From Circinella umbellata (Eukaryota > Mucoromycota > Mucoromycetes > Mucorales > Lichtheimiaceae): a stretch of DNA of 64,000 nt. Every line of letters starts with the position of its first letter. Positions within the stretch are counted from its first letter, which is position 1. Location: positions 186,001-250,000 of the forward strand of contig JAIWNF010000027.1 in assembly GCA_025093555.1 (NCBI GenBank), in the 5' to 3' direction. This document shows, one piece after another, positions 7,642 to 54,670 of this stretch. Both the position numbers and the translations under genes were made by a program. The notes beneath the pieces were generated by a model. It did no database searches, was not told where the DNA came from, and was given only the letters and a program-made list of their open reading frames with translations.

Positions 7642-9808
<2,167 letters not shown>

Positions 9809-26648: not shown

Positions 26649-27140
26649 AAATCCATTATAAATATTTATACATAAACTATTTTTTACTGTTGTATTTTTT
26701 CATGTTGTAGCACATAGGGGGTTGTTTAGCTTTCTTATGATTTTAAATATTCTGTCTACGTCCAAAAAAACTTACGTATTTGTTAAAAATGATTACATAC
26801 TTATACTTTACTATCTAACAGATTAAAGTATTTTTTAGTTGATATTGTACGCTTTAAATAACATAATATATTATTCATCATTTTACAACATCTAATATGA
26901 TAATAACATCGATTTCTTATGATATACATTGACGTCAACAGCGAAAGAAAAAGTAGTTGTCGAATGCCAAGAATACTTATTTTCAAATAAGCTCAGTTAG
27001 TTAGTTGAAATCTTACAGAACAACGAATTGAAGGAAAGGTCAATTTGGATATGAAGGAAAAATTTCATGTTACACACAGCTGTCCTATTCTGTAGTATAA
27101 TAGTCGTCGCTTCTGTTATTTTTTGGACTACCGACTAACC
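26649..27140. other. Intergenic region upstream of the aldehyde dehydrogenase
   Basis: Tandemly oriented genes flank it. It is AT-rich with no ORF of interest and probably holds the 3' end of the acyl-CoA synthetase gene and the promoter of the dehydrogenase. Confidence 0.5.
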
Positions 27141-28592
27141 ATGTCAGCAACAAAAAAAGCATGGAATGCTTTGGGACCCTACATTCGTGGAGGATTTCAA
27201 ACATCAACAACACGTGCACGATCCATTATTGATCCATGTACAGGAAAACCAACGACAACAAACCATGTCGTTACAGATTCTACTATTGACCATGTCGACC
27301 AAGCACTTTTGAGCGCACGTCAAGCACAACGCGGTTGGGAATCCACCACTGGTAGTCAACGACGTGATGCACTTTTAGGTCTAGCCAACAACTTATCTCG
27401 TCATCGTGAATCCCTGACCGACCTTGAACGTATTCAAACTGGAAAACCACGAGACGACGCTGAATATGAAATTAATGACACTATTGAATGTATTCGATAT
27501 TTTGCCGGATATGCCGATAAACTCTTTGGTCACTCCATGATCGACAGCAATAATAATTTACATTCCATCACTGTACGTGAGCCGTATGGTGTTGTAGGTC
27601 TTGTTGTTTCATTTAATTACCCATTAATGCTTGCTGGATGGAAATTAGCACCTGCATTGGCCGCTGGTAATTGTGTTCTGCTTAAACCAGCACCACAAAC
27701 ACCATTAACTGCTCTTGCATTGGCGGATTTAGCAAGTGATTATTTACCTTCAGGTGTTCTAAGCGTATTACCTGGAGGTAGTCAAATTGGACAGCGAATA
27801 TTGGAAGGGGTGGATAAAGCTAGTTTTACTGGTTCAACAAAAGCAGGACAATTAATTATGCAACAACAAGCGCAACGGCTGATACCTTTGACATTAGAAT
27901 GTGGTGGGAAAAACCCAGTAATTGTTTTGAAAGATGCAGATATTGAAGAAGCTGCAGGGCACGTTGCGTTGGGAGCATTTTCAAATGCTGGACAAAATTG
28001 TTGTGCTGTTTCACGGGTATTGATTCATCAGTCAATTCATGATAAATTTGTGGATGCTGTCAAAAATGAAATGGATAAAATCGACTATGGACCAGTAATT
28101 GATAAGAATCAATATAATCATGTACAAAGTTATCTTCAACAAGTCAATAGTAACAAACATGGTAATGAACCAACCTATATCGGAGCACCCCCACCTACAC
28201 TACAACAATTACAACACGAAACAAAAGATGGATATTTTATACCAGCAACATTGTTCACCGATGTTTCAGACGATGCACCGATAGCAACAGAAGAAATCTT
28301 TGGACCTGTATTAAGTATCTTAAAACCATTTGATGATATTGAATCAGCCATTCAACGTGCAAATAATTCACCTTATGGATTAGCTGCAGGTGTCTTTGGA
28401 AAAAATCAACGACAAACACACCATGTTGCATCCAGGTTACATACAGGTTATGTTTGGGTTAATACTTATAATTTAATGCCACCATATAATCCATTTGGAG
28501 GACGTAAATTATCGGGTATTGGTAAAGATCTTGGTCAAGCTGCTTTAGATGAATTTACATTTGTAAAAAGTATAGTCACTGGCTTATACTAA
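27141..28592 (+). CDS. Aldehyde dehydrogenase (ALDH9/betaine-aldehyde-dehydrogenase-like)
   Basis: NAD(P)-dependent oxidation of an aldehyde to the acid. Intronless, 483 residues, typical of the family. The start is the ATG in ACCATGTCAGC. Motifs in order: VVSFNYPLMLAGWKLAPALA (cofactor domain), LKPAPQTPLTAL, SFTGSTKAGQ, the general-base Glu253 in LECGGKNP, catalytic Cys287 in NAGQNCCA, EEIFGPVL, and NPFGGRKLSGIGKDLG near the end. NAGQNC resembles ALDH9/BADH more than the mitochondrial NQGQCC type. The N-terminal GPYIRGGFQTSTTRARS could hint at organelle import, but this is weak. The intronless state contrasts with its neighbours. Substrate cannot be set from sequence. Confidence 0.92.
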   Translation: MSATKKAWNALGPYIRGGFQTSTTRARSIIDPCTGKPTTTNHVVTDSTIDHVDQALLSARQAQRGWESTTGSQRRDALLGLANNLSRHRESLTDLERIQTGKPRDDAEYEINDTIECIRYFAGYADKLFGHSMIDSNNNLHSITVREPYGVVGLVVSFNYPLMLAGWKLAPALAAGNCVLLKPAPQTPLTALALADLASDYLPSGVLSVLPGGSQIGQRILEGVDKASFTGSTKAGQLIMQQQAQRLIPLTLECGGKNPVIVLKDADIEEAAGHVALGAFSNAGQNCCAVSRVLIHQSIHDKFVDAVKNEMDKIDYGPVIDKNQYNHVQSYLQQVNSNKHGNEPTYIGAPPPTLQQLQHETKDGYFIPATLFTDVSDDAPIATEEIFGPVLSILKPFDDIESAIQRANNSPYGLAAGVFGKNQRQTHHVASRLHTGYVWVNTYNLMPPYNPFGGRKLSGIGKDLGQAALDEFTFVKSIVTGLY

Positions 28593-31019: not shown

Positions 31020-31340
31020 TGCATTAGTGGAAAGGAAGGGCCTTTAGTTGGTGCCTCAGGGTTTTTGGAGCAATCACAACCAGTCGTTAAAGTGCAGATG
31101 TGAAAGTTAATGTGCGGAATTATTATTGGCTCAAGTTGTTGATTATAATTTACAGACAAGTACTTTGGTACCTCTGTTCTTGTCATCTGTCCAGTTCTGG
31201 TCAATTTGGACTCGCACAAGGGTACCATCTTTTATTGTGGGCCTGAAGGGAATAACCCTCTTCGGGTTATTATGGATCTTCACTGAGACCTGATACCCCC
31301 ACATTCTTTCACCAAATACACTAATGTAATTCAAGGCACT
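31020..31340 (-). pseudogene. Frame-shifted coding remnant of unknown origin
   Basis: The minus strand reads SVFGERMWGYQVSVKIHNNP, RVIPFRPTIKDGTLVRVQID, then after a frame change near 31150-31170 VPKYLSVNYNQQLEPIIIPH and FHICTLTTGCDCSKNPEAPT. The region is less AT-rich than its surroundings and the amino-acid mix is protein-like, but I do not recognise the family. Placed between a MITE and a LINE fragment, it is probably transposon-derived. Confidence 0.35.
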
Positions 31341-31496
31341 ATACTTGCATTATGGCGATCCTACTGGAATCTGGTATTCAACAATCATCCTTTTGTTCCA
31401 GAACAAGTATTTCGCTCTGCTTTAAAAATAATTCATTCTTTACAACATCCACCTGATGATTTATTAATTGCTTTGAATTACTATTATTATATATAG
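31321..31496 (+). pseudogene. LINE reverse-transcriptase ORF 3' tail fragment
   Basis: Plus strand reads NVIQGTILALWRSYWNLVFN, NHPFVPEQVFRSALKIIHSL, ending at TAG 31494-31496. The LALWRSYW pattern is what I recall from C-terminal ends of LINE polyproteins in Mucorales. It fits a 5'-truncated insertion, although no poly(A) tail is obvious. Family assignment is from memory. Confidence 0.45.
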
Positions 31497-31934
31497 ATAG
31501 ATATATATATATTCTTCAATACATATTTCCAAAAAAATAACAAAAGAAAAACTATCCATTTGTTTATTTTCTGATTCTTTCTTTACGTAGCTAGTAAATC
31601 TTTCAACCTTATATTCGACTTTTAAGTATTGTTTTCTTTTTTGACGTTACATCCCTTTGTTCCATTTCCATACACGTATCTTCCATAATAAAATTTTTAA
31701 CCTCAACCGACTATTTATATATATAAAAAAAAAAACTTCGGTACCTCTGTGACATTATGAGGTTATAATTTACATAAGGTAAGAAGCACCAGGCAAACAA
31801 AAACTACTTTTGGTATTTGACTTTTTTAATAATGAATATTAAAAAAAAATATTTACAAAAAAAAGTTATTACAAAAAAAAGTTATTACAAAAGAAAAAAA
31901 AATTATAAAAGAAAAAAAATATTAAAAAAAGGAA

Positions 31935-32370
31935 CTAATCCTTTTTTTCTTTAATCCTGGACATGTAGCGATCAAGCTCCATGTCCAGTACGTCGATATT
32001 ATTATTATTATTATTTTCGTTGTTGTTGTTGTCGTCGCCAGTGGTCAAAGAACCACGAGCACGACCGCCACCACCACGACCACCACGGAAACCACCACGG
32101 CCGCCACCACGACCACGACCGCCGCGACCGAACAGCCAAACCCCGCTTTTTGCACAGGTGGGATTTAGGCCAAGAGGTGTGCAAAAAGCGGGGGTGTGCA
32201 AAAATCGGGAGTGCAAAAAGTGGAGTTCGACCGTCATTGTTGTTGTTGTTGACGAGAGCACGACGTAAGTAATCTGGAAGATTACTACCACTACCTGCCA
32301 TGATTATGCTACTGTTTTGCATGTTAATCATGGCAGGAGTGTTTCGATTTCTTTCTGTACGCCGTGTCAT
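31935..32370 (-). pseudogene. FoP/CHTOP-like RGG protein gene split by a MITE
   Basis: The N-terminal part starts MTRRTERNRNTPAMINMQ and reaches DYLRRALVNNNNNDG. The C-terminal part has GRGGRGRGGGRGGFRGG followed by VLDMELDRYMSRIKEKKD, the LDxELDxYM motif of the Friend-of-PRMT1/CHTOP C-terminal domain, a family involved in mRNA export and arginine methylation. The two parts lie in different frames because of an insertion of about 103 bp (32131-32233). Taking out the insertion together with one copy of the flanking CGACCG brings them into one frame. No splice sites that would remove it precisely are visible, so the allele looks broken unless alternative splicing rescues it. Confidence 0.65.
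32131..32233. mobile_element. Small palindromic MITE inserted in the FoP/CHTOP-like gene
   Basis: Related to the MITE at 15831-15914: CAGCCAAACCCCGCTTTTTG at one end, and at the other end (reverse complement) CGGTCGAACTCCACTTTTTG, with internal TTTTTGCAC units. CGACCG occurs on both sides (32125-32130 and 32228-32233). It is either a 6-bp target duplication or partly the element's own degenerate end. Confidence 0.65.
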
Positions 32371-33733
32371 TGAAATAAATTTTTGGTGGAGAGAAAAAAA
32401 AGAAAATACGAATCTTTTTATATATCTAGCAAAGCAGTAAGATTAATTTATTTTTTCGTGCATTGTCAATAAAGAGTTTTTTTTATGGTCATGGGTGCTT
32501 ATCAATTGTTTGTTTCTCCATGTATAGTATAGTATCATCTTCACAATGACAAAATATGTTTTCATTTTTCTTCCACTAATTCATATATCAATATTACGAT
32601 TGATGATCTACATACATACTTATTTTTTTTTCATTATTACTATTATAATGTCTTATTTTTATAATCACAAGAAAGAATAACTTTCTTATGACACTCTTTT
32701 TGTAATTGTTTTAATCGATATTGTTGATCAATGTATCATACGTACGATTAAATGAGTGCACCATCAAAAAAAACCTATCTTTGTTCCTATCAAAAATACG
32801 GAAACCAATGTAATGATATCAATGTTCCTTACTCAACAAAAAAAAATGTTTCACTTTTTCCCCAACTTTTGGTTATGCATCATCAATCAACAAGTAGGAA
32901 ACAGAAAAACAAAAAGATGTCATTTACCTCCTCTATATTCATTAATGCTCAAGTAATGTTCTGTGTAACAATCGAAAATCATGCGTTCATCAATATAAAG
33001 AATGTACTCTCTTATTTACTACTTGATGCTATAAGGAACAAAAATAATTTATAACCAGTAAAAAAAAAGAATCGACTTCACCATCGATGGCATGTTTATC
33101 TATCATTATTTGTGTTTATGTTTATAGAAATAATAGCAGCATCAAATAATTTTCTGTCAAAAAATATTCATCTTTATCTAAAACTGAATAAGCATTAAAT
33201 TATCAAACAAAGAATAGAATAAAAACTATACCAAAAGAAAGATCAAGCTTTTCCCATTCAAATGAAACCCATCATCATATATATATTAATGATGATAATA
33301 GTGAAATAGAATGAATGAATAGAGTAATCATCATTTCTTTCATTTAATAGAAAAAATAAACAACCCTTTTTCTTTATTTATGCAATTTTATGTGTTCCGA
33401 TTGGTTCATTGTTATATAAAGTGCACGAACATAATGATGGTTAAACGGAAAAGTGCGCTTTCCCTGTCATAGAAAAAAGATAAGCAAAACGTGTGGTAAA
33501 AATATAATTGTATGCATCCGCAGTTAAGAACTTCAATGACATTGTCATTAACACTCTATTTCTCTCAAACACTCAAACACACACTCACACACACATATCA
33601 CTTCTCGTTTTTATTAACTACATATATAGTATACTAACTTAAACTTACAAATCTTATATTTTTTTTTATTACGTATTTTCTATTCATTTTTATTCATTTA
33701 TATAGGTTTTTTTTAGTTATAAATATATACTAT
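32371..33733. other. Intergenic region upstream of the XPG-like/Fanzor-like locus
   Basis: AT-rich. Short coding-like pieces are seen on the minus strand (for example ERMIFDCYTEHYLSINEY near 32925-32985), but they could not be joined into a gene. (CA)-rich sequence occurs near 33570-33595. No terminal inverted repeat matching the 3' side of the Fanzor-like gene was found by eye. Confidence 0.4.
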
Positions 33734-35647
33734 ATGGGTGTCAAGAACATTCATAATACACTTAAATCAAAAAATGTATTTCATTCTAATGATAATTTAA
33801 AGCAACATTTGGATTCAAATTATGTAAACCACGTATTTATTGATTTATGTCAATCATTTTTTTGGGTTTTACGCAAGCGGGCTGTAGATCTTTTAAAGCC
33901 TCAATTTGAAATTGGTAATAAGATCACAACACATTTTATTTGTGTACGTATCCTAAATAAGTATTAATTTTCATATGCATGAATTTATTTCTTTACGTAT
34001 CTTTTTATATTCTGGCTCCACAGCTACCCAAGATGTTATAAATAATAATACACAAAAAGTCACTGCTGGAATCGTCGCGGATATCATTAGCTGCTGCCTC
34101 AATCTCTATTTTAACCCCGTTACCGGTCATCCTATGCCACGTTCTATTGTATTGGTTCTTGATGGGGAAAGTCTGCCGATAAAATCCGAAACACATGATA
34201 AGCGCGACCAATACGCAACAAGTAAATTCAAGGAGGCAAAGGAACTATACAAGTCGCGTGGTATCAAAAACAAAAATTTCATAGCAGCAGCAAAAAGTGC
34301 TGTACGTTTTACATCGGATATAAAGACTGCTATTATTGAAGTAGGTCTAATTTTATATTATTATCGTACCTAATAGAAAAACAAAATAAGTGCAAGATAT
34401 ACAAAAGGAAGAAAAAAAAATAAATTAAAAGAAGTATATATATTTTTATTAATGGACCCATATTTTATGACCCTTTTTTTTAGATTCTCAAGAAAACTTA
34501 TCAAACATTTGATCCACTAGCAGATTTTCTTCCCGCTGTTTATTATTACCAAGCACCTTATGAAGCAGATGGCATGATTATTAAGCTGGCTTCGATGTTA
34601 CCATCACCACAAAATCAAACAGCTATTATCTCTTCCGATAGTGACTTATTGGTTTACAAAAGATGTTTGGATGTCATGCGAATTATGGAAATTAAATGGG
34701 GCGCTCCTAGTATTGGCTCTATCATCTCAACAACCAAATTATGTACCAAACGTGACATTCTTCAGAAGCTTCATCTCAAGCACCAAGACGATAGTACTTT
34801 TGATATGGCTGAAAAGCGTCTCATGATTCTTCCATCAGCACCTGGTAACGACTATGCTAAAAATATTTATGGTATTTCTTTCGCCAAGTTACGAATCCAA
34901 ATGCTTAATTTAATGGAATCAGAAGGAAAAGACGGACTTGGAACCCATCCAGATGAAATGCTCGCCTCTTTGCTATCAATTTATAACCGTGTTGGCAACA
35001 AGACGAAATTTGATATGCAATGTGCTCTTTATACTTATTGCGTTTTTACTACTCGTCCTCCTCAACAAAATAATGACCAAGCACCATCATCATCGTCTAC
35101 AACTTTCCAATTAAAAGAGTATTTTGTTACTGTATTTGATAAACTTCGAACTACTTCTTATTCTAAACAAAGAGATACAGAACAACAGCAACAAGAGCAA
35201 CAACAATTACAATTACAACATCAGCGGCACCACCAGCACCACCAGCAGCAACAAGAACAACAACAAGAACATCATCACCATCATCATCATCCAAAAATAC
35301 AAAGACAAAAAGAAGCACAAAAAGAAGAACAAAGAGAAAAAGGAAAAGGAAAACAAAAAGAATCACCTAATGCATCTGAATCTGCTCATTGGCAGCTCCG
35401 TTCTTTTGAAGGGCGTTCGAGCTCGGTCTGTGTTGATTCCCCTCTGACTTTGTCAGGAGGTTGTCGGCACCGACTTGGTAGTACTGCTGTTGAATCGAGT
35501 AGTAGTGTAGCTAGCAGCTCGGATCAAGGTCCTGAAGCGCAGCCGTATTGTTCTTCCGCTATTACTTCCGGCAGTCCCCATGAATCTGCACTCATGAATA
35601 TATCAAGTAATGGAAAAAAAAACAGGTCGATATTTATTTATTCGTGA
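33734..35647 (+). CDS. FEN1/XPG-like structure-specific nuclease domain protein
   Basis: Three exons (33734-33914, 34024-34340, 34484-35647) give 553 residues. It begins MGVKNI, as FEN1/XPG proteins begin MGI. Acidic residues align with the FEN1 active site: Asp37 (FIDLCQS), Asp107 (VLDGESLP), Glu193/Asp195 (QAPYEADG), Asp218/Asp220 (SSDSDLLV). LPIKSETHDKR matches the helical-gateway start. From about residue 360 it becomes Gln/His-rich and then Lys/Glu- and Ser-rich. The stop overlaps, by 38 nt, the start of the Fanzor-like ORF in the +1 frame, at an A9 tract (35613-35621). It may be the N-terminal half of a single fusion protein with a one-base slip, or a separate gene. Exon 1's donor could instead be 66 nt from the acceptor (GTGTAC). 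Confidence 0.75.
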
Positions 35648-38600
35648 TGTTCAAAGGATTCCAATGGATGCAACCGTACCTGAATATAAAGGTGACTTGA
35701 GTAAAAGACAACAACGACGAACAAGCCCCTCTGCCAAAAGACAAAAGACAAAACAAAAGGGTAAAGGAAAGGCTATCAGTATTCAAGATAATAATGATGA
35801 TGATGCTGATTATGATGATGATGAAGAAGAAGAAAGATTATCAACAGCCAGAAACACAGCTGCGTTATATACTGGACCTGCCAAGACGATTTATTACCGT
35901 AAACCAGGAGCTACTGAAGAAACAAAGGTTGTACAAATATCTCGAGCGATGAAAACATGGACATGTGGATTAAATTCATCAGTATTAGCAAAAGCATGTC
36001 AACGTTATGTACCATTTGACCGTCCCTCTCAACAAAGTCAATTGGTTGGACAACCATCTTCATCTTCGTCAACTATAGCAGATGCACATGAAGCTTCTAC
36101 AACAGCAGTGTCAGGAACAAAGAATCCTAAAGCTCAAATAGTTAATCCAACTGCTGTTCACCAGGGAAATTTGTTGACATGCGTTATTTATCATGAAGTT
36201 TCTCAGCTTAGCCTTGTACGGCAAATCGCAATGCTGATAGGTAATATGATTGTCAGATATGCTTTAGAACTTAATGAATCTTCAAAAACAAAAGTTTATA
36301 GGTCATTTTTCTCAATATCTTCGGTCAAAATCTGGAAATGGATTATTTATTGTGCAACCGATTACCGACCCTACCGGTATGACAAGGATAACAACACAGT
36401 TCAATTTGATAGAGCAACAATTGGCCAGTACAACATTCAAAATCTTCCAACTAATCCTCTGGCATTCGTTGCTTATCCTGGTGACGAAAAAACAATAAAA
36501 GGTCTATCATATATTATGCGTGAAAATATAGAGCTCCGAAGCATTATTTTATATGTACGGCAATTATGGTTTGCAGGATATAATGACCAGAATATCCCGT
36601 GGTTACCATCATCATGGCTTCGTCGAGAAGTTTTGGATGCTATTGCAGAAGACATCGATATTCACTTTCGACAAACACTCGTTTCACACTTTGTTGATAA
36701 TTTTTCCAAATATATTACCGTCAGACTCAAGGAACAAGCACAAGTTGCACTTGATTGGCCAAGCGATGACAAATTTCGACGTTATGTTCTCCGTCGATGG
36801 CAAAAAGAAGCATTGGGTCCTACTGATCATCAAGTCGAGAAGAACCTGAAAGACAAAGGTGACGTTATCAACAACAGTGTTCAAAACTGGATTAAATCAA
36901 CATGGGCACATATTCGTCGAACGGGCAAGAAGGCAACCATGGTATTAATTGATCAGCAGTTAGAACGCAAAGCAACAGTGCCTCGTGGTTGGACAACTGA
37001 AGAAGGTTCTTCCGAATATTTAACAGCACAAATTTGGGAAATTCCTCTTGAAGTCGATGCTCGACATTCATCCGTGATAAATGTTGGAAAATGTAAAGAG
37101 GCTAGCGCTGCTCTTCGAAAAGCAACAAGAAAAGTTCAAACAGATGTCGATGCATTTATCAAACAAGAAAAAAATAAGTGGCAGCAATTTGTTGGAAGAC
37201 CCATTGGAGCTCGAGCATCTCAAGTTGATATAAATTCTAACCAAGCGCCAGTTGATTTATTTGATTGTTTTGGTATGAAACGGGTTAATCAACCAACGAC
37301 TGGTTCACGACGACAACGTGATGCTAATTCTGATGAAGCGTCGAATCAAGGCCAAGATGATAATAATAGTCAAGACGAAGCTGGATCCACTGAGCATGCT
37401 TATATTTTAACATCTATATTGGCTCGGATTCTTGAAGATTATCCAGAAAAGATTTCCTTTTCTATTTGTCCAACAGCACCAAGCAAGAACGTATTTATTC
37501 CTTTACATGGCTCATATACCAGAAATATACTTACTCATATGGGCGACTTTGTCAAATATACTAAGGATTATATACATCATAAACTTCAGCGAGCAGAAAC
37601 ACATCAAGATATTTTGACAATTAACAGCACAAAAAAACGTAAGTTTCAAAAAGTGAGATATATTTGTGATTAATAGTACTTTATCTAACTTTTTTTTTCA
37701 ACCAATCTCTTCTTTATGTTAATTATAGAACAAACATTACTATTTGATGCTCTTGAAAATAATGCTCTCGAAATACTCAAGCAAGATGTTGCCCGATCTG
37801 TGCATAGTGCTGAAGAAGCATTATCATTTATTGTTGATTTGGGAAAAAGTGCTGTAATTGACTTGCCAAATCTTGTCAATATCAAACGATCCAAACATGC
37901 CACTGACTTACGTAAGATGCTTGAAAATGAACGCCAAATTCCACGATACACAATACGCATGCTTCGAACAAATGGTGTCTGCTTACAAGCTGTTATGACT
38001 GATTGGGGCCGCCCACGTCGAAAACTACAGCAACGTCAATTCAAATATCTTGTTGAAATCCGTAAATTTGCATTCAGAAAATGTGAAGAGCTTGGGCAAC
38101 ATGATGCAAATCTTCTCAACGAATACAAAGGTGTTTTTGGAATTGATCTGGGTGAAACATGGACTGCCGGTGCCTTTTATCTTCCTACCGATACAGAACA
38201 TCAGCCTGGTGTACAACATACCATTAGACGAGATGAACTTTATGGTCGTGAACCTATCAATAGAAAGTGGTTAGAAAATCGAAACGAACAGACTTCAGTG
38301 CACAGCATTCAACGTGATTTAGCAAAAAGCGATGGCAGCAAAACATCCAATATGGTTAAATTTTTGACTTTTATCCGTACCTGGCAAGCCGAAGACCGTG
38401 GTTTTAGATTGCATGATGCGCACTCAAGCAAAGCAGAACTCCATCGTTCCTGGGATACAAAAATGTCAATGCGCTCAGAAATTGATAAGGCATGTGAACG
38501 GATCATTAATATAGCAGACGCGTCTCGTCAACGTGCAATTGAAGAAGATGCCCTTTCAGAGCTGTCTACAAGAAAGAACAAATTCTTGATTGGTATAGGA

Positions 38601-39020
38601 TTGGATGGAATGGATGAAGGTAATCGAAAGGGCGCCAAGTCAGGACTTGCTCAACAATTTGCCGATAAACTTTATGACCACGCCAAGGCACGACAAGAGC
38701 CTGTCCAAATCGACTTGTCACGTATTGACGAATATTGTAGTAGTAAACTATGCTGTCATTGTTTTATGGAAGGTGAAATAATATATGTGGAGTATTTACG
38801 CCGGCCCCCTGCTCCTAGTCGACAAGTCAATAAAGATAAGTTGGATAATCAAGGCAAAGAAAAAGTCATTCGTGTCCTTGTTTGCGAAAACTGCCACAGG
38901 AAATTTCATCGTGATGGAAGTGCAGGAAATGTGCAAGCATCTATAGCTGCTTCCATCCTTGAACATGGACAAAGGCCCCAAGCAGTGATCAGCAAGTTTC
39001 GTCGTATTAACTCCCAATAA
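35610..39020 (+). CDS. Fanzor-like (eukaryotic TnpB/OMEGA) RNA-guided nuclease
   Basis: Two exons (35610-37638, 37729-39020) give 1106 residues with no disrupting mutation. Residues 30-55 are strongly basic (KRQQRRTSPSAKRQKTKQKG), a likely nuclear localisation signal, followed by an acidic run. The C-terminal 300 residues carry the TnpB/Fanzor RuvC core: RuvC-I Asp816 in FGIDLGETW; KGAKSGLAQQFADKL before the rearranged RuvC-II Glu1011 in IDEYCSSKLCCHC; second zinc-ribbon pair Cys1062/Cys1065 in VCENCHRKF; RuvC-III Asp1072 in HRDGSAGNVQASIA. This E-x-SK-C-x2-C ... C-x2-C ... HRD-x-A-N order is diagnostic. Fanzors are known RNA-guided DNA nucleases often carried by transposons. Here it lies 3' of, and overlaps, a FEN1/XPG-like ORF. 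Activity and guide RNA are inference. The middle 600 residues are unrecognised. Confidence 0.85.
35613..35621 (+). other. A9 homopolymer at the XPG-like/Fanzor-like frame junction
   Basis: GG followed by nine A then CAGG. With eight A the upstream frame would continue directly into the downstream ORF. The upstream frame contains A-AAA-AAC, a classical -1 slippery heptamer, but a -1 shift would not enter the Fanzor-like frame; a +1 shift is needed. Confidence 0.6.
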
Positions 39021-39533
39021 AACACAAGGCGATCAATAAAAAACTTCAAGATACGATTTAAAAAAGATTGACGTGGTTTGAAGTTTGTGTCAATAAGACA
39101 AGCACAAGAATATGATTCTACGACTACAAGGCATGGTAATCAAGGAATCAAAACACTTTGTTTGACAAAAGTGTTGAAGTTGAAATACTTCGTGGAGTGT
39201 AAGTATATATCCATATTAAAAAAAAATTGATTCTGCACTTAAAAATATTTTTGCTGACCTACAGATATAGTTACACTCTTAAAGGAAGACTAAAAAAAGA
39301 CCTGCTTATTATTTAAAGAAGGAGATAAAAAACCATTAGATGATTAAATTCAAATAACTTGTTGTATTAAGATAACTATTACTATCTTTGGTGAACAGAA
39401 ACGCCAAGTGACATACCATAATAAATTCTTGGCTATCTTATCCCCCTCCCAAACAAAAAAAAAGTGTTTATGTTTGCTGCGAAACAAATTTTAAAGTTCT
39501 TTTTTCCTTTTCTTGATTTTTTTTTAAAAAAAA
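39021..39533 (+). other. 3' flank of the Fanzor-like gene; possible guide-RNA region
   Basis: TnpB and Fanzor guide RNAs typically overlap or follow the 3' end of the nuclease ORF. Here an inverted repeat AACTTCAAG / TTGAAGTT lies in about 39043-39090, and a hairpin AACACTTT / AAAGTGTT (8-bp stem, 8-nt loop) at 39152-39175. These are compatible with, but do not prove, a structured RNA. The next gene starts only 513 bp after the stop codon. Confidence 0.3.
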
Positions 39534-41927
39534 ATGTATAATACAATGCGTAACCCAAAACCTTGTAAAGGTATTTCATAATAATAATCTTAATAAAATA
39601 AGCTTTTCATTTAATTTAACAGTTATTAATTGCAATTGTATTAGTATGTAAATATCGAAGGAAAAAATGTGTCTGGAGTAGTCTCAACGATAATAGTGAT
39701 AATACCGATCGACGAATACGTTGTGCTCGTTGCTTAAAACTTGATATTGAGTGTATACCACAATCAGACTCGAGCGATGAACAACTAGAGGATGCTCTTA
39801 ATTCATCAGAACTTATGGCACAGGATGGGGATCCAGAATTACGCCGCATGTTGGACGATATGAATCAATTACAAGTTGAAATGCAACAATATGAATCAGA
39901 AAAAAAAGATATGGAAAAACAAATGTTTTCATTAGTCACTAATACAACCGCCAAGTCACCATCATTATCTTTATCTTCTTCTCCTTCTCTATCAACAGTA
40001 TCATCTTTTTCTTCTACATTATCACCCTTTTCCTTTCCAACAATATTAGCAACAACTACGGGCAATAAAAATTCAAAGACAACACAAGAGCCTACAGAAT
40101 GGAAATTAAGTATTATTGATGGCTCTATACGCCTTAATACACCTATTCGTACCATTGATGAACTCATGATGTTTACCCAAGCTTCTTTACGCTATTTATC
40201 ACCATTTACCGGTTTATTTAAACAAGAGCCTGTTCGTTTTGAGGCAACATGTATCAGTCCTTCTCTTGGATTAGCTACAGTCCTCCAACGTAGTGTTATT
40301 TGTCGATCACGTAAAAAGCAACAATTCGATATGATCCGTTACAATAGCAACAATACAACACAACTTTTTGATTATCGAAACATTATGAATTATCTCTTGC
40401 CTCTCTATTTTAAATACGTTGTTCCTGTTACGGGATTAGTTCATGCACCTACATTTTGGAAACACTATCAAAGTCTCGACGATCCTTTCGAATGTCCTAT
40501 TGCATTAGCAACTTCCATAGACGCTCTTGTTTCTTTGCGTAACGTTATTGATTACACACCCATTCAACGACGGACTATTGCTGATTTCTTTTACAGTAAA
40601 TGTAAAGACCTATTGTTTGATCTATACGAAAACCCGGATAGTAAACTGGATGTTATCATGGTGACATGTTTATTACAAACTTACTTGACAGACGTTTTAT
40701 TGAATGCAGTGGAAGCACGCCGATTACTTTCTGTTGCGTTATTGCTCTGTTTAGAAATGGAAATCAAGATAGATGAAATGACTGACGTTCAACGAATATT
40801 ACTTAAACGACATCATATGAGTATGGAAGTCCAACAACGGTCATTCGATATGTTATTTGAGGATAAAATTGATTTTGCAGTACCTGATCGACTGCTTGGA
40901 TTGGAATATTTGGATGATGAACCAGAAAAGACCAAAATGTATGTTAGGATATATAACCATATATTTCGATTTATTGGGAGTCCGTATATTTCAGAGATCA
41001 TGGTAAAGTATTTATATCAAGCACACGTACACGTGTAACCTTTTTTTTGTTTTGTTTAAAGTTATATGCTAATTGACAACTTGGGTTTTTTTTTTGGGGG
41101 GGGGACGATTATGTAATTCATAGGGACAAGTTAATGGAATTTTTTATGGTGAACATTGTGAAATATATCTGGAAGACTTATTACGGTATGAACCTATTGT
41201 ATTGGAATGGTGGAATAGTTTACCTTCTGACTTACAGCTGTGTGAAAACCCATTTGACCCTGAGGCATATAAATTGGTTGGAAAGAAATTATCTCCCAAT
41301 TTATTGTTTCCATTTACTGCCGTGCATTTAATGACTGCTGTCTTGACGTCTTCTGTTTTAAAACCTCAATATACCCCCTCACCAGATAACGCAATATCCA
41401 TCGATGTAATGCGAGCTGTACGAGAAAAATTAATGTCGCTTGCGCATAATTCAAGTAAAGTTCTAATACATTCATTAAAAGTCAATTGGGCTCAATACCA
41501 TTGTGATACACCATCATGTAAGTTTCTTAGGAGGAAAAGAGAGGGGGAGATAATAGGATTTGTATAATTGAAATAAAGAAAGGGGAATATATACTAATAT
41601 GATGTCATTGTCTATTTAGTTTCTTTATGTGTGATTATCCATGTACTTTATTGTCTGGAAAAACTAGGTCATTGTACCGATACGCCTTTTCCTTTCCATT
41701 TATTATCAATGATCAAAGAAAACTTCAATGAAAGGAGGATAGAGTTGTTACCTGTTGGTCATGAAGTCCCCTCATCCGCTTCTTTATTGGTATCTTTGAT
41801 GGAAAATCCGAATCAAAATTTAATCGACTTATATGGACAATACCCACTCCCTGGATACGCAATGTTATCTGACGTACTCTGTACTTCATTTTCTCTATTG
41901 GACCAACATCTTCGTCCAACCTTCTAG
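39534..41927 (+). CDS. Zn2Cys6 fungal-specific transcription factor
   Basis: Four exons (39534-39570, 39645-41002, 41124-41517, 41620-41927) close to 698 residues. The binuclear zinc cluster is split by intron 1: PCKVCKYRRKKCVW gives Cx2Cx6C, and IRCARCLKLDIECIP completes it. A short coiled coil (MLDDMNQLQVEMQQYESEKK) follows, then a Ser-rich linker and a fungal-specific regulatory domain (YFKYVVPVTGLVHAPTFWKH, YLTDVLLNAVEARRLLSVAL). Domain and intron positions match the partial gene at 62453-64000, so the two are paralogues. Two in-frame ATGs (39534, 39546) are possible starts. The promoter, if any, is within 513 bp of the Fanzor-like stop codon. Target genes are unknown. Confidence 0.85.
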
Positions 41928-42425: not shown

Positions 42426-43579
42426 CTAGTCTTTCTTCTCGGCCAATTCTTTTAATTTTTTAGAACACATCTATTAGGGGAACATTAAAAAAAAAGATAA
42501 ACTCAATTGTTAATAAAAAGAAAATAATAATTTCATAAATATAAAAGATATAATTACCTCAAACCATTTTGAATGATCTTCTGGTAATGAAATTTTTTGA
42601 GCCACTTTGATAAGTTTTAATGCCTTATCAACATATTCCTTGATGTATTTAGATCGAATGACATCTGGTTCACTATCATAAAGTTGTGATACCAAAATAT
42701 CCGTTTCATCCGTTAATTGTTGACCTGCCTCTGCCAGTTCATCACATACATTTAGATCAGCTTCCTTAATACATCGTTTCTCCACCTTGACATAAACGAA
42801 TACAATCAAATCCACCAATTGAGCACATTGTTTTGCAATCTTTAATTGTTCCTCGTCCCATTCTTCTTCGTCTTCGTCTTCATCAAATCCTTCGGCATTT
42901 CCATCTGCTACTTCATGAACTTCTGATTTAGCATCCGCTACTGTTTCATGCATAGTTTTCCATTTTTTTAATACAGCCTCGCGATTATCTTTTGGCATTT
43001 GAGTTTCCAACAGTTTACACGTTTCCCATAATACAGCTGTGGGGACCATAAATTGTTTCTTCTTGTCATTCTCGTCGTCATTGATAAAACTATTACAGAG
43101 TGAAATTTGACCGAGCAATAAATCTCGAATAGCAGTACGATAGGCTTCCTTATAAGCTTTTCCAGATAATTCAGTAGGAATGGTATGATAAAATCCCAAA
43201 AGTCGATAAAATGTATTACTTATTTCTGTAATCATTTTAATACCATCCATGGGTTTTCTGGGTGGTTTACAAGCAATAGTTAACTTGGTCGCGTCATGGC
43301 TCAAGATTTTACCCAAATTGGCCAAAGTGATGTTCATATTTTTCGAATCGAATTCGGAATTCTCAATAGGTCGATCTACTTTGAGATCAGAAAGGTACGT
43401 TTCAGCCATGTCACGACATGCCTTGAGCTTGTCTATTCTTAAACAAGTAAAGAATTTTTTTTTCATTGAGTAACTTTTATACAATGAGAGTATCGAATCT
43501 CGAATTATCAAAAAAAAAAAATTACTATTTAAATCAAAAACAAAACAAACATACTTTGAAATGCTTCTTCAGTTGACAT
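42426..43579 (-). CDS. Cyclin-D1-binding protein 1 (GCIP/CCNDBP1)-like protein
   Basis: Three exons (43579-43555, 43432-42558, 42470-42426) close to 314 residues. It starts MSTEEAFQN and ends CSKKLKELAEKKD. The helical body matches the GCIP family: IACKPPRKPMDGIKMITEIS, LGFYHTIPTELSGKAYKEAY, PTAVLWETCKLLETQMPKDN, an acidic stretch FDEDEDEEEWDEEQL, and SEPDVIRSKYIKEYVDKAL. Animal homologues bind D-type cyclins and other helix-loop-helix partners; the fungal role is not known to me. The final 15-codon exon was chosen because it is in phase after GAG|GTAATT and ends at a clean stop. Confidence 0.78.
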
Positions 43580-50925: not shown

Positions 50926-52299
50926 TTACGGCTCAGCAGCGAATGGATAGTAAGACAAGAACCTACGATTACGGAATTGAATATACTTTGAAAAAGTACT
51001 TTTTCTTGTGCCAACAAAAAATGAACCATGAGAAGCTACTTCCGCATCAACTAAGGGCAATAATAAGGGTCCAAAATGATCATTTTGTTCGCGCGCAGCT
51101 GGGCTTGCACCCTCTACAGTTTCTTGAACTATTTCTGGAAAATCGGGCAATGTAAACAAGCAAACAAATTCTTCAAACAAGTCTGGTAATGTTTGACGGG
51201 GCTGAGCGGTATCTGTAGCCATAAAAATAAGTCGCAATCTTGGATGAAGCAAGTCGCGATGATGCTGGATAGCTGTACATTCATTTAATAATTCTCTGGT
51301 TTGACCTTCCTGGGCTAATGCTTGCAATCGTGCCATAATAGCATATTCTTGTTCATGATGCATTCGATGGAGTGTAGTATATCGTTCCAATGTTTGTCGT
51401 ACTTTATCCATGGTACGTGTCATGATCGTCTTGAATACTCCATCACCCGTACGTAAATGAACGCTAACAAAATTACCGGGACCACCCAATAACGAAACAA
51501 TATTAAGTGCTTCTTGCATCACTGTTGGGTTACCGAACCCAATTTCACCCGATAAATGTTGTAATAACCAGTAAAGATCATTGCGAGCATCCAAAACCAA
51601 TCTTGGCGTACCAAATAAGGAGCCGAATTCTATTAATTGTTCAGTTCGTTCTTCTAAGTCTTGCAAATTAATACGATACTTGAATTTATTTAATGGCTCT
51701 GTACTATTGATACTATCGTAAATTCGATATGAGGATCGCTTATCGTCATTAACTTGATAAATATTATCTTCTTCAAAACCGAATCGGTCATGAAAATAGG
51801 TTGTACGCATATCATCTCGCTGAATGTATCGAATACCCAAACGGTGCAATGCTGATAGATCAAAAACGGTGGAAACAGGAACAGGGACGTATTTTCGATA
51901 ATCGGCGCACAATCCATTACGTTCAGATAGCGGTTTTTCAGGACAATCGCTCAATTTTTGTGCCAAAAGCGGTGAATCAGCCCAATAAACACCTTTACCC
52001 AAATTGATCTGTGGTAAAATCAAGGTACGATCCAACGCCTTAGCTAACACCATAGCATTTAATAAACCAAGTCGCTGGTTATGTAATCCAGAATGGGGAT
52101 AAAATGTAATGTATTTTTCATTAGGGTTAGACAAGATTTTTTGTTGGCGGTCAGGAAAAAAACGTTGTATCCGTTTTGATGTGGGTTCCCAAATGTTGTG
52201 TTGAGCGTCACTTAATCCCTCTTGTGACAAATAACCAAGTGTCAGCAAGAAAGTAATCGTGGCTAAGCCTATGGATAATAAGAGTTTATATGAACGCAT
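50926..52299 (-). CDS. GDP-fucose protein O-fucosyltransferase-like type II membrane protein
   Basis: Intronless, 457 residues. The start is the ATG of MRSYKLLLSIGLATITFLLT, giving a short cytosolic tail and a signal anchor, as in Golgi/ER glycosyltransferases. The family core is visible: FYPHSGLHNQRLGLLNAMVL (GDP-binding N-R-L motif), LAKALDRTLILPQINLGKG, SVHLRTGDGVF (HxR), and near the end DAEVASHGSFFVGTRKSTFS, the C-terminal GDP-fucose motif with F-x-G/S-T-x-S. Acceptor is unknown. The C-terminus after FVGTRKSTFS is short. The high content of codon-rich, less AT sequence and lack of introns resemble the aldehyde dehydrogenase gene. Confidence 0.8.
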   Translation of the reverse strand: MRSYKLLLSIGLATITFLLTLGYLSQEGLSDAQHNIWEPTSKRIQRFFPDRQQKILSNPNEKYITFYPHSGLHNQRLGLLNAMVLAKALDRTLILPQINLGKGVYWADSPLLAQKLSDCPEKPLSERNGLCADYRKYVPVPVSTVFDLSALHRLGIRYIQRDDMRTTYFHDRFGFEEDNIYQVNDDKRSSYRIYDSINSTEPLNKFKYRINLQDLEERTEQLIEFGSLFGTPRLVLDARNDLYWLLQHLSGEIGFGNPTVMQEALNIVSLLGGPGNFVSVHLRTGDGVFKTIMTRTMDKVRQTLERYTTLHRMHHEQEYAIMARLQALAQEGQTRELLNECTAIQHHRDLLHPRLRLIFMATDTAQPRQTLPDLFEEFVCLFTLPDFPEIVQETVEGASPAAREQNDHFGPLLLPLVDAEVASHGSFFVGTRKSTFSKYIQFRNRRFLSYYPFAAEP

Positions 52300-52624
52300 T
52301 GGAGAAGATAGTATGGAGGGTAGAGCGAGAATAAAGTTGAAAAAAAGGGACAAGATGAAGAAAGAGAAAGATGAAAAAGAAAAAATATATATTTTTTTTT
52401 CGAGAATATATAAAAAAAAAAAAAAAAAAAAGAAAGAAAAGTCAAAGGCAAAAAGGATAAAATGCTTTTTATAGCGATTATTTTTTTAAAAAAGAAAAAA
52501 AAAACGAAAATAGTTTATTTTAAGAAATGTATAACTGTTTTTTATTAGAGTTGGTCAAGTGAACTTGTTATACTCCAAACTTGGTGTTAAACAAAAACAG
52601 TGTACTATGAAAAGATATTCCTTT
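52300..52624. other. Short intergenic region
   Basis: Between two minus-strand genes. It contains an A-rich run (about 52411-52440). It probably holds the fucosyltransferase-like promoter and the bZIP 3' end. Confidence 0.4.
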
Positions 52625-54670
52625 TTAAGCATCGTCTAGACCAGGTGAAGGTGTCGCCATCAACTGTGTTTCAAGTTCCACCAGCTGGGCTTTGACTATA
52701 TCTTTTGTATTATCATCAATGCTTTGTTCTCCTCCTGCCGTATGTGGCTGTGTTACAGCTGGTTTCGGTGACAGTTGTTGTTGTGATGATTCATTTTGTT
52801 GTTTTTGTATTTCTTGTACTTCTTGGGATTGTTGTACTTGTTCTTGTTGTTGCGATTGCGACTGAGGTGGAGACGGATCTTGTATGGTAGATAGTTGTGG
52901 TGATTGTTGTTGAGGTGAAGAAGTAGACGATGTCGTTGCAGTTGTTGCTTGTTGTTGCTGAGCTTGCTGATGCTGTTGTTGATGTTGACTAGCAGCCGCC
53001 ATCACTGCAGCCGTAAAAGCACTACTGCTACCAGGAGGAAGATGCCCCATTCCCAATTTTGCATTCAGTTCTTCCACTTCTTTCATCAATCGATAACTTT
53101 CAGACGAATTTGGCAAACCACTCAAGGCAAATTTGGCATTTAACTCATCCACTTGTTTATGTAACCTTGCATTTTCATCTTCTAGACTTTTGATTTTATC
53201 TTCCATATCTTGAATATACTGTTTTTTCTTTTTACGGCATTCTTTTGCTGCCATTCGATTTCGTAATAAACGTCGCTGACGCCTTTCATCATTACTCATA
53301 TTCCGCGTTGCAGGGTTACGTTGTTGCTGTTGTTTGTTATTATCATCATCGTGATCATTGTTGCCATTATTGACTGAATTTGTATTATTTGTATTGTTAC
53401 TGTTATTAGAATTGGTGTTACTACCATTTGAGGATGTATTATTATTATTGTTATTATTAGAGTTTTCACCTGTTGCTGATGATGACTGCGGAATAGCAGT
53501 TGGCTGAGGTATCTGTTGTGGCGGACCGGGTAATGCAGTGATCACATTACCAGCACCTTGAAGATGTTGTAATAAATTTAATCCAGGTACAGCAATAGGT
53601 GATACCATGGCTTGAGCTAATGAAGATGCTGTCAAGTTGGCAAGATCTTGTCCGCTTGCTTGTGCATAAGTTTGTAAGAATTGTTGTTGTTGTTCAGTAA
53701 TAAAAAGAGGTTGTGGTGGTTGTTGAGCTGTTTGTGAAGGAGATGATGAAGAAGAGGGGGATGGAATAGCTGATGTAGTTGATGTTGGAATCGATAGCAT
53801 GCCATTGGAACTAGCCACGGCTGCTGCAGCTGCAGCTGCTGCAGCTGCTGCTTCAACTACTTCAGAACTGGGTTCGCTTGGATTATTTTTTAATTGAATT
53901 ATAGTTGGAGCTTTACCACCAGGAATAATGTTGTTATTATTATTATTAGTTGTTGTTGTAGTGATAGTTGGAGTAGATGAAGTAGGTGTAATATTAGGAG
54001 AAGATGTAACTGTAGTTGTTGAACCGGGTATGGATGACGACAATGAAGTTGGTGGAGAAATTGGAGTAATAATGGGGCGTGTAGTGGTAGAATTGTTTGC
54101 GGCAGCAGCAGCAGCTGCTGCTGCTGCTGCAGATATGATGGAAGCAGGTGGATTAATTGGTGTAATGACTGAAGGCATTGCTGGAATACTTGGCGGAGCG
54201 CTTGAACTAGTAGTAATTACTGGACTTGTGGCATAGGTAATACCAGTTAATGTAGAAGAGGATGTTCCTGTGTTACTATTATTATCATTACTATTATTGG
54301 TGGTTCCTGGAGCTGTTGATGGCGCATTATCAGTATTATTAGTATTATTGTCTACTGACTGTTGCTGCTGGTGTCCTTGTTGTATTTTAGACGATGGTGA
54401 TTCAACATTGGGTTCACATTTAACTGGAACTAGATCTGAAAACTGATGTTCTTGTTCATCATTATTATATGTTGTTATGATAGAAGGTTCACCGCCATCA
54501 CAAGTTTTACGTGCTTTAGTTTCTTTTGCATCGTCGGGTTGTTCTGAAGCTTGTCGCTTATTGCTGTTCACCGCATGTGACTCGTTTTCAGATCCATTAA
54601 TAGCTGAATTCAGGTGTGATGCTTGATCATAATTAATATTATTATTATTATTGTGGGCTGACTCGGTCAT
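52625..54670 (-). CDS. CREB/ATF-like bZIP transcription factor
   Basis: Intronless, 681 residues. Long Asn/Ser/Thr/Gln-rich regions contain four or more polyalanine runs (for example SAAAAAAAAAAAN and VEAAAAAAAAAAAVA). The bZIP starts near residue 460: RRQRRLLRNRMAAKECRKKK, with the basic-region N-x7-R at NRMAAKECR (Asn471), then QYIQDMEDKIKSLEDENARL and HKQVDEL as the heptad zipper. The AAKECRKKKKQYI sequence is CREB/ATF1-like and predicts binding to TGACG. After the zipper a segment is duplicated: DELNAKFALSGLP and EELNAKLGMGHLP. Four TGATGACG copies lie 400-500 bp upstream, suggesting autoregulation. Confidence 0.85.
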   Translation of the reverse strand: MTESAHNNNNNINYDQASHLNSAINGSENESHAVNSNKRQASEQPDDAKETKARKTCDGGEPSIITTYNNDEQEHQFSDLVPVKCEPNVESPSSKIQQGHQQQQSVDNNTNNTDNAPSTAPGTTNNSNDNNSNTGTSSSTLTGITYATSPVITTSSSAPPSIPAMPSVITPINPPASIISAAAAAAAAAAANNSTTTRPIITPISPPTSLSSSIPGSTTTVTSSPNITPTSSTPTITTTTTNNNNNNIIPGGKAPTIIQLKNNPSEPSSEVVEAAAAAAAAAAAVASSNGMLSIPTSTTSAIPSPSSSSSPSQTAQQPPQPLFITEQQQQFLQTYAQASGQDLANLTASSLAQAMVSPIAVPGLNLLQHLQGAGNVITALPGPPQQIPQPTAIPQSSSATGENSNNNNNNNTSSNGSNTNSNNSNNTNNTNSVNNGNNDHDDDNNKQQQQRNPATRNMSNDERRQRRLLRNRMAAKECRKKKKQYIQDMEDKIKSLEDENARLHKQVDELNAKFALSGLPNSSESYRLMKEVEELNAKLGMGHLPPGSSSAFTAAVMAAASQHQQQHQQAQQQQATTATTSSTSSPQQQSPQLSTIQDPSPPQSQSQQQEQVQQSQEVQEIQKQQNESSQQQLSPKPAVTQPHTAGGEQSIDDNTKDIVKAQLVELETQLMATPSPGLDDA

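What the first reader, a model, noticed from the sequence alone, without database searches (positions are those of the whole stretch)
33734..39020. Intact Fanzor-like RNA-guided nuclease adjoining and overlapping a FEN1/XPG-like nuclease
The 1106-residue protein keeps the RuvC Asp816, Glu1011, Asp1072 and both zinc-ribbon pairs of the TnpB/Fanzor family. The overlapping upstream ORF keeps six FEN1/XPG active-site acidic residues (Asp37, Asp107, Glu193, Asp195, Asp218, Asp220). I know of no described system that couples a Fanzor with a structure-specific 5' nuclease. A flap/bubble nuclease next to an R-loop-forming nuclease could act on the guide-RNA:DNA intermediate or help repair or excision. 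This is the best candidate here for an undescribed system.
Basis: partly seen in the sequence, partly recalled or inferred. Interest (0 to 1): 0.92.

Follow-up and report, generated by a model that had tools for sequence, protein, structure and literature searches.

The report
Jumping gene fusing two DNA nucleases
A fungal jumping element carries what was very probably one gene joining a FEN1/XPG-like structure-cutting nuclease to a Fanzor-like RNA-guided nuclease, a combination that, if active, could show what Fanzors do for the elements that carry them.

Summary
The window has a three-exon XPG/FEN1-like ORF (33734-35647) with seven acidic active-site positions, and a two-exon, 1106-aa Fanzor/TnpB-type ORF (35610-39020) with D816, E1011, D1072 and a C4 zinc ribbon.

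Two things change the picture. First, this is the cargo of an ~8.24-kb transposable element (31039-39280) without recognizable terminal inverted repeats, flanked by the 8-bp duplication AAAGGAAG. The 50.8-Mb host assembly holds at least 9 loci with Fanzor sequence, 3 of which also keep XPG sequence, plus short derivatives.

Second, the 'overlap' of the two ORFs is a frame offset at an A-run. Two related proteins, one from Circinella minor, read in one frame from the XPG ORF's C-terminal part into the Fanzor N-terminus. The ancestral gene was therefore most likely an XPG-linker-Fanzor fusion.

Limits: no complete intact fusion was seen; both halves score below Pfam cut-offs; the Fanzor has DLG, not the usual DPG; no transposase was found; structure prediction failed; XPG shows no constraint.

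Most likely role (inferred): Fanzor cuts the unoccupied site and the XPG part processes the displaced strand, favouring copying of the element.

The parts
31039..39280 (.). Transposable element, about 8.24 kb, no recognizable terminal inverted repeats
   Evidence: Shared borders with paralogous copies by blastn; end sequences compared by eye and repeat search
31031..31038 (.). Left copy of the 8-bp target duplication AAAGGAAG
39281..39288 (.). Right copy of the 8-bp target duplication AAAGGAAG
33734..33947 (+). XPG/FEN1-like part, exon 1 (starts MGVKNIH; D37)
   Evidence: frame and GT/AG sites; splice not confirmed by transcripts
34024..34340 (+). XPG/FEN1-like part, exon 2 (D118)
   Evidence: matches at C131 and C144 only
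34484..35647 (+). XPG/FEN1-like part, exon 3 (E204, D206, D229, D231, D300), then Q/H- and S-rich linker; frame stops at 35647 after the A-run 35614-35622
   Evidence: relatives continue into the Fanzor part
35610..37638 (+). Fanzor-like part, exon 1 (basic stretch, variable N-terminal half)
37729..39020 (+). Fanzor-like part, exon 2: RuvC D816, E1011, D1072 and C4 zinc ribbon
39194..39278 (+). Right end with a possible 14-bp terminal stem (arms 39194-39208 and 39265-39278); candidate 3' part of a guide RNA
   Evidence: stem kept in about 7 of 9 aligned copies, 0 of 23 predicted pairs with changes on both sides, so no covariation support; no Rfam match
31935..32291 (-). FoP_duplication-like ORF in the left arm (captured gene or a second element gene)
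   Evidence: Pfam PF13865 30.1 bits, cut-off 24.6; a related open frame in the C199 derivative scores 18.4

Best explanation
The finding is the coding cargo of a fungal (Mucorales-type) DNA transposable element of about 8.2 kb with 8-bp target duplications. The cargo descends from a single gene of roughly 1,650 codons encoding an N-terminal XPG/FEN1-like 5' nuclease, a low-complexity linker with a basic stretch, and a C-terminal Fanzor1-like, TnpB-family nuclease. In the window copy the two halves lie in different frames at a homopolymer run (mutation, slippage site or assembly error). Most likely working, inferred by analogy to TnpB: an RNA from the element's right end that reads into the flank guides the Fanzor part to the unoccupied allele or donor site; RuvC cuts there; the tethered XPG part cleaves the displaced strand or 5' flaps at the R-loop, which hinders religation and favours repair by copying the element. 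The transposase acts in trans and was not found. Shown: element, duplications, anatomy, one frame across the junction in two relatives. Inferred: RNA guidance, XPG activity, cooperation. My split: element and fused ancestry about 0.85, the cooperative mechanism about 0.33.
For: Shared borders with paralogous loci; exact 8-bp duplications abutting the element in 5 of the 7 copies that the script could test, one more by eye in the eighth; XPG and Fanzor order kept in C144 and partly in C79; P0001 and P0002 cross the junction in one frame (P0002 matches the XPG ORF over 2-193 and the Fanzor ORF over 185-312); complete acidic sets in both halves; open frames over the whole window copy apart from the offset; dN/dS 0.43 for Fanzor codons 236-1106 against the C170 copy, synonymous excess P=0.031 in a matched simulation.
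Against: No complete fused ORF was seen: P0001 is a 282-aa piece of a 2,560-nt contig, P0002 leaves the frame after about residue 312 (by eye), and how either source predicted its protein is unknown. XPG shows no constraint (dN/dS 0.95 against C144, whose copy has two stops; 0.72 over 83 codons against C79). The deleted form shared by C170 and C146 spread without XPG in cis. The no-stop test for the Fanzor part is not significant at 0.05 (P=0.058). Both halves are below Pfam cut-offs. The window copy lacks an 80-180 nt stretch downstream of the Fanzor stop that other copies have, so its guide-RNA region may be damaged. No guide RNA or transposase was found; structure prediction was uninformative.
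Confidence: 0.55

Rival explanations
1. Two separate transposon genes: an XPG-like nuclease that helps transposition itself (end processing or gap repair) and an independent Fanzor; the open frame across the junction in relatives is incidental or a gene-prediction effect.
For: In the window both halves have their own ATG and the frames differ. Deleted copies that keep the Fanzor C-terminal part and lack XPG moved or were copied.
Against: P0001 and P0002 run through without interruption; the two ORFs leave no room for a promoter between them, they overlap by 38 nt; the start of the Fanzor ORF is conserved as protein in the same place in C144 and C79.
Confidence: 0.2
2. A dead passenger: XPG was captured once by a Fanzor element, became joined in frame, and has no function; only the Fanzor part was ever maintained.
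For: XPG dN/dS 0.95 against C144 and 0.72 against C79; 6 of 9 Fanzor loci have no XPG match; the window's frame offset.
Against: All seven acidic positions are kept in a protein that is otherwise very diverged from host XPG-family exons, and three exons are open. The C144 ratio is pulled towards 1 because that copy is itself broken. XPG pieces occur at 5 loci.
Confidence: 0.2
3. The XPG/PIN-type part acts on RNA, trimming the element's guide RNA, rather than on DNA.
For: Only analogy: some RNA-guided effectors mature their own guides (recalled). A tethered metal nuclease would serve.
Against: The kept motifs resemble the DNA flap/exonuclease type, YEAD...SSDSDLLVY against YEADAQL...TEDSDLLVF in a host gene on C184. 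The four Fanzors characterised in PMC10432273 are RNA-guided nucleases (passages); that they lack such a domain is my recollection.
Confidence: 0.05

Closest known systems
Fanzor1 elements of Mucorales: MCi-2, MCi-4, MCi-5 (Mucor), ROr-4 (Rhizopus), PBl-3 (Phycomyces); PMC3627910, section 12 read in full
   Same: Fanzor1 cargo in Mucorales; MCi-2 and MCi-5 lack recognizable TIRs; MCi-2 has fuzzy 5' ends; [quoted passage not shown]
   Different: Duplications there are 11-12 (MCi-2), 6 (MCi-5) or 9 bp (MuDR type), here 8; 'XPG', 'flap', 'fused' and 'fusion' do not occur in the main text. The element sequences in its additional files were not compared, so MCi-2 with its 6-kb 3' region could be a relative.
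PGv-1 (Mariner element of a Phaeocystis virus): transposase + GIY-YIG nuclease + Fanzor; PMC3627910, passages
   Same: A Fanzor and a second nuclease in one transposon.
   Different: Another nuclease fold, separate proteins, own transposase.
Eukaryotic FEN1/EXO1/XPG nucleases
   Same: MGV start, YEAD, SSDSDLL and NDY...GI motifs; seven acidic positions.
   Different: Very diverged (XPG_I 19.6 bits, below cut-off; not among the 6 XPG_I places of the assembly); sits in a transposon beside a Fanzor.
IS200/IS605 and IS607 TnpB elements
   Same: RuvC/zinc-ribbon nuclease as transposon cargo; expected role by analogy.
   Different: Eukaryotic, intron-bearing, no TnpA seen, XPG part attached.

Membership tests
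Fanzor/TnpB | Motif D-X(125,275)-[TS]-[TS]-X-X-[C4 zinc finger]-X(5,50)-RD (PMC3627910) | tested here: met
   D816, S1014-S1015-K-L, C1018/C1021/C1062/C1065, five residues, R1071-D1072 (and reading)
Fanzor/TnpB | Pfam zinc-ribbon profile PF07282 | tested here: inconclusive
   E=0.0005, 20.6 bits, below the cut-off of 26.3; the genome-wide scan did not list this locus
Fanzor | Alternative RuvC glutamate six residues before the zinc finger (PMC10711439, passages) | tested here: met
   E1011-x6-C1018xxC1021
Fanzor | DPG motif in RuvC1, near exclusive in Fanzors (PMC10711439, passages) | tested here: not met
   DLG, also in C170, C144, C79 and C146; Fanzors on C200 and C156 of the same assembly have DPG. 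I therefore call it Fanzor1-like and divergent
Fanzor | RNA-guided DNA cleavage with a guide RNA at the right end | not testable with these tools
   No small-RNA data; right-end stem without covariation, no Rfam match
XPG/FEN1 (Rad2) nucleases | Seven conserved acidic metal-binding residues (recalled) | tested here: met
   D37, D118, E204, D206, D229, D231, D300; E204 to D300 checked against host XPG exons, D37 and D118 by motif only
XPG/FEN1 (Rad2) nucleases | XPG-I profile over the curated cut-off | tested here: inconclusive
   E=0.0012, 19.6 bits against 24.9
XPG/FEN1 (Rad2) nucleases | XPG fold | tested here: inconclusive
   AlphaFold2 of exon 3 alone, without an alignment: mean pLDDT 37.3, not usable
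XPG-Fanzor fusion | One open frame across both halves | tested here: inconclusive
   Continuous at the junction in P0001 and P0002; offset in the window; no complete fusion seen
DNA transposon (DDE type) | Fixed-length target duplications | tested here: met
   Exact 8 bp in 5 of 7 copies by script (C131, C170, C144, C199, C163); C146b by eye; C146a 7 of 8 by eye; C24 none
DNA transposon (DDE type) | Terminal inverted repeats and a transposase | tested here: not met
   No TIR seen in the ends. No transposase noticed in the element's ORFs or in ORFs of 110 aa or more of 14 left-end loci, read by eye and not profile-searched

The most novel reading that the evidence does not exclude
A natural one-chain, two-nuclease editor: an RNA-guided Fanzor-type RuvC nuclease with a built-in FEN1/XPG-type nuclease that trims the displaced strand of its own R-loop, turning an RNA-guided cut into a gapped end that favours copying of the transposon into the homologous site.
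Probability: 0.33. Interest if true: 0.88.

Novelty: new variant of a known kind. Interest (0 to 1): 0.7.

Why it matters
The biological role of Fanzors is unknown (so stated in PMC10432273, passages). A lineage that joined a flap/bubble nuclease to a Fanzor would be a direct clue that processing of the cut or of the R-loop matters to the element, and would make that role testable. It would also be a natural counterpart to the use of FEN1 in engineered prime editing (PMC12386499, search listing with the start of the abstract only). Apart from the fusion, the element adds a Fanzor family without recognizable inverted repeats but with fixed 8-bp duplications and short derivatives that must have moved in trans.

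Tried and rejected
Chance adjacency of two host genes: rejected, because both halves lie between shared element borders and the pairing recurs in C144 and C79.

Retroposition: considered because copies carry internal deletions; rejected because the Fanzor intron is retained in the C170 and C144 copies and the C170/C146 deletion junction shows no splice signal (by reading).

Programmed -1 frameshifting at the A-run: rejected, the offset is in the other direction (by reading). Transcriptional slippage or an assembly length error at the run stay open. An intron joining the two frames in the window is not needed, as relatives are continuous.

Capture from a close host paralogue: 6 XPG_I places found in the assembly; none looks close in the alignment (identities not computed).

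Leads that gave nothing: protein searches with the Fanzor part (7995 candidates scored, none at E<=0.001; 1486 candidates, none at E<=1); viral contigs with each half; NCBIfam and PHROGs (nothing meaningful); PDB sequences; AlphaFold2 without an alignment (mean pLDDT 37.3 and 34.0), so no fold search was made; Rfam; covariation of the right-end stem; a guide-adjacent motif in the left flanks (by eye: C/G-rich next to the duplication, no motif).

Not in print, as far as searched: 'Fanzor'+'XPG' 0 papers; 'Fanzor'+'Mucoromycota' 0; 'transposable element'+'XPG domain'+'fung' 0; 'Fanzor'+'Circinella' 0; 'Fanzor'+'domain fusion' 2, neither opened; 'TnpB'+'flap endonuclease'+'transposon' 2, neither opened; 'Fanzor'+'fused'+'nuclease'+'fung' 8, of which I opened one ('fused' there, in the places shown, means tags); at least two of 'Fanzor', 'XPG', 'FEN1', 'Rad2' 1,002 papers, 20 listed, none of those 20 holding 'Fanzor'; 'Fanzor'+'transposon' 60, 30 listed; 11, 10 listed. 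I opened three papers: PMC3627910 (sections 5 and 12 in full, passages), PMC10711439 and PMC10432273 (passages). The library holds open-licence PMC papers only; supplements were not available.
Full report
WHAT IS THERE. The window is G000:C131:186001-250000 of a 50.8-Mb assembly of 210 contigs. The only named relative found is from Circinella minor (Mucorales), so a Circinella-like fungus is likely; the species was not established. The Fanzor-like protein is 1106 aa from two exons, 35610-37638 and 37729-39020. Its RuvC residues are D816, E1011 and D1072, with zinc-ribbon cysteines C1018, C1021, C1062 and C1065. A motif with gaps widened to fit is found once, at 816, and in 0 of 20000 shuffles; the two published narrower patterns do not match. 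The XPG-like ORF needs three exons (33734-33947, 34024-34340, 34484-35647) and carries D37, D118, E204, D206, D229, D231 and D300. An alignment with exons of the 6 XPG_I places of the host places YEAD, SSDSDLL and NDY in the family's columns; by eye the nearest is the gene on C184. Both profile scores stay below curated cut-offs.

THE ELEMENT. Blastn of the surroundings against paralogous loci shows shared borders at window 31039 and about 39278. Eight copies with both ends were looked at. The script could test 7 of them and found exact 8-bp flanking duplications at the borders of 5: C131 AAAGGAAG, C170 CAGTTATT, C144 AAAAGCGT, C199 CACAATAA, C163 CGTTTATT. In C146a the script reported only an unrelated A-run, but 7 of 8 bases agree at the border by eye; C24 has none. 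The eighth, C146b, was not tested because the script did not find its divergent right end; by eye it shows CCTAATTCAT. As background, 3 of 42 mismatched pairings of flanks also shared 8 or 9 nt somewhere (where they lie was not checked), so it is the position at the borders that carries the argument. No inverted repeat at the ends was recognized. The right end carries 1 to 5 extra nucleotides in those five copies, and the left end of C170 begins about 14 nt further in. The ends are thus somewhat fuzzy, as reported for MCi-2 of Mucor, whose duplications are longer (PMC3627910, section 12).

COPIES. Fanzor exon 2 finds 21 matches at 9 loci: C131, C170, C144, C146, C113, C130, C79, C135, C128 (a lower bound). 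XPG exon 3 finds 6 matches at 4 loci: C131, C144, C79, C112. XPG exon 2 finds only C131 and C144. A further XPG piece sits at C151. Three of the 9 Fanzor loci therefore keep XPG sequence (C131, C144, C79). C170 and C146 share one internal deletion joining window 31796 to about 36313, which removes XPG and about the first 235 residues of the Fanzor; they lie on different contigs with different flanks. The deleted form therefore moved or was copied without XPG in cis. Its Fanzor frame in C170 has its first ATG only 74 codons into the remaining open frame. Shorter derivatives with both ends and no nuclease are C199 (2.1 kb), C146b, C163 and C24 (0.57 kb). No transposase was noticed, in a reading by eye that covered the element and 14 left-end loci.

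THE JUNCTION. In the window the XPG frame and the Fanzor frame overlap by 38 nt (35610-35647) and part at the A-run 35614-35622. The protein search with the XPG part returned 2 proteins at E<=1 among 2551 candidates. P0001 (282 aa, 2,560-nt contig) and P0002 (339 aa, Circinella minor) both read ISSNGKKTGRYLFIRDVQRIPMDAT, that is, from the XPG ORF's C-terminal part straight into the Fanzor N-terminus. P0002 matches the XPG ORF over its residues 2-193 (80%) and the Fanzor ORF over 185-312 (88%). P0002 then leaves the frame (by eye), and P0001 is a fragment. Neither is a complete fusion, neither contains the XPG active-site part, and how either protein was predicted is not known; but both have the frame open across the junction. 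The A-run differs in length between the window and C144. My reading is one ancestral gene; whether the window's offset is a mutation, a slippage site or an assembly error cannot be told here.

SELECTION. Window against C170, Fanzor codons 236-1106: dN/dS 0.43 (24.5 synonymous, 38.5 nonsynonymous differences, no stops or gaps). Against C146 0.39, C144 0.63, C79 0.55, C113 0.67; these four copies contain 2 to 4 stops each. XPG against C144 0.95 over 401 codons (two stops in the copy); against C79 0.72 over 83 codons. A simulation matched for substitution types gives, for window against C170, P=0.031 for the synonymous excess and P=0.058 for the absence of stops. This is modest support for constraint on the Fanzor part and none for the XPG part.

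MEMBERSHIP. The protein meets the original Fanzor/TnpB motif and the alternative-glutamate feature of Fanzors, but not DPG: it has DLG, as do C170, C144, C79 and C146, whereas the Fanzors on C200 and C156 of the same assembly have DPG. I call it Fanzor1-like and divergent. The 10-kb surroundings of the three PF07282 hits (C200, C156, C134) gave no tblastn match to the window's XPG or Fanzor, so the XPG partner was seen only in this element family.

MECHANISM. By analogy with TnpB (PMC10432273, passages), Fanzor cutting of the unoccupied site should promote copying of the element. XPG/FEN1 enzymes cut at bubbles and 5' flaps (established knowledge). An R-loop contains a displaced strand, and SpuFz1 leaves 5' overhangs (PMC10432273, passages). 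A tethered XPG nuclease could therefore trim the displaced or flapped strand and hinder religation. Shown: anatomy, element, duplications, frame open across the junction in two relatives. Inferred: RNA guidance, XPG catalysis, cooperation. Against it: XPG-less copies spread, XPG shows no constraint, and the window copy lacks 80-180 nt of the region downstream of the Fanzor stop that other copies have. The right end can form a 14-bp stem, but without covariation.

VERDICT. The strongest new result is that the two nucleases lie in a transposon with 8-bp duplications and are read in one frame across their junction in relatives. Searches of the paper library found no such combination, within the limits given under Tried and rejected. 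The fold, the guide RNA, the transposase and a complete intact fusion all remain to be shown.

Noticed in passing
31935-32370, minus strand; L049 1694-2263: Left arm of the element carries a small FoP_duplication-like ORF (PF13865 30.1 bits, cut-off 24.6), split over two frames in the window by a 17-bp tandem repeat but open in the C199 derivative (18.4 bits); three other places of the assembly pass the cut-off (C178, C13, C1). Captured host gene or second element gene.
   Followed up: partly
31182-31739: Left arm is 72-78% identical to DNA at C178, C194 and C150; at C178 and C194 this is the end of an ORF with a YADD reverse-transcriptase motif (by eye), so the arm contains the 3' end of a LINE-like element.
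   Followed up: partly
39130-39135: The window copy lacks a stretch of 82-182 nt downstream of the Fanzor stop that C170, C144, C146, C113, C130 and C24 have.
   Followed up: partly
L041, L042, L043 (C200, C156, C134): Other, unrelated Fanzor/TnpB-type loci of the same assembly (PF07282 at 50.6, 37.5 and 25 bits); C200 and C156 have the DPG motif.
   Followed up: partly
L061 (C131:86625-86661): A solo copy of the outermost 37 nt of the left end (97% identical), without the rest of the element.
   Followed up: no
left flanks of seven copies: The two bases before the duplication are nearly all C or G (GG, CC, CC, CG, TC, CC, CC by eye) in an AT-rich genome; possible insertion preference.
   Followed up: no
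39663-41038: Next to the element's right side lies an ORF with a C-x2-C-x6-C-like start, perhaps a Zn2Cys6 regulator (by eye); its 407-aa ORF has no Pfam match at 1e-5.
   Followed up: no
8193-9314, 27123-28592, 42510-43511, 50926-52353, 52625-54670: Ordinary host genes by Pfam around the element: SGT1, aldehyde dehydrogenase, GCIP_N, O-fucosyltransferase-like, bZIP factor; 5 of 10 ORFs scanned had a match at 1e-5.
   Followed up: no
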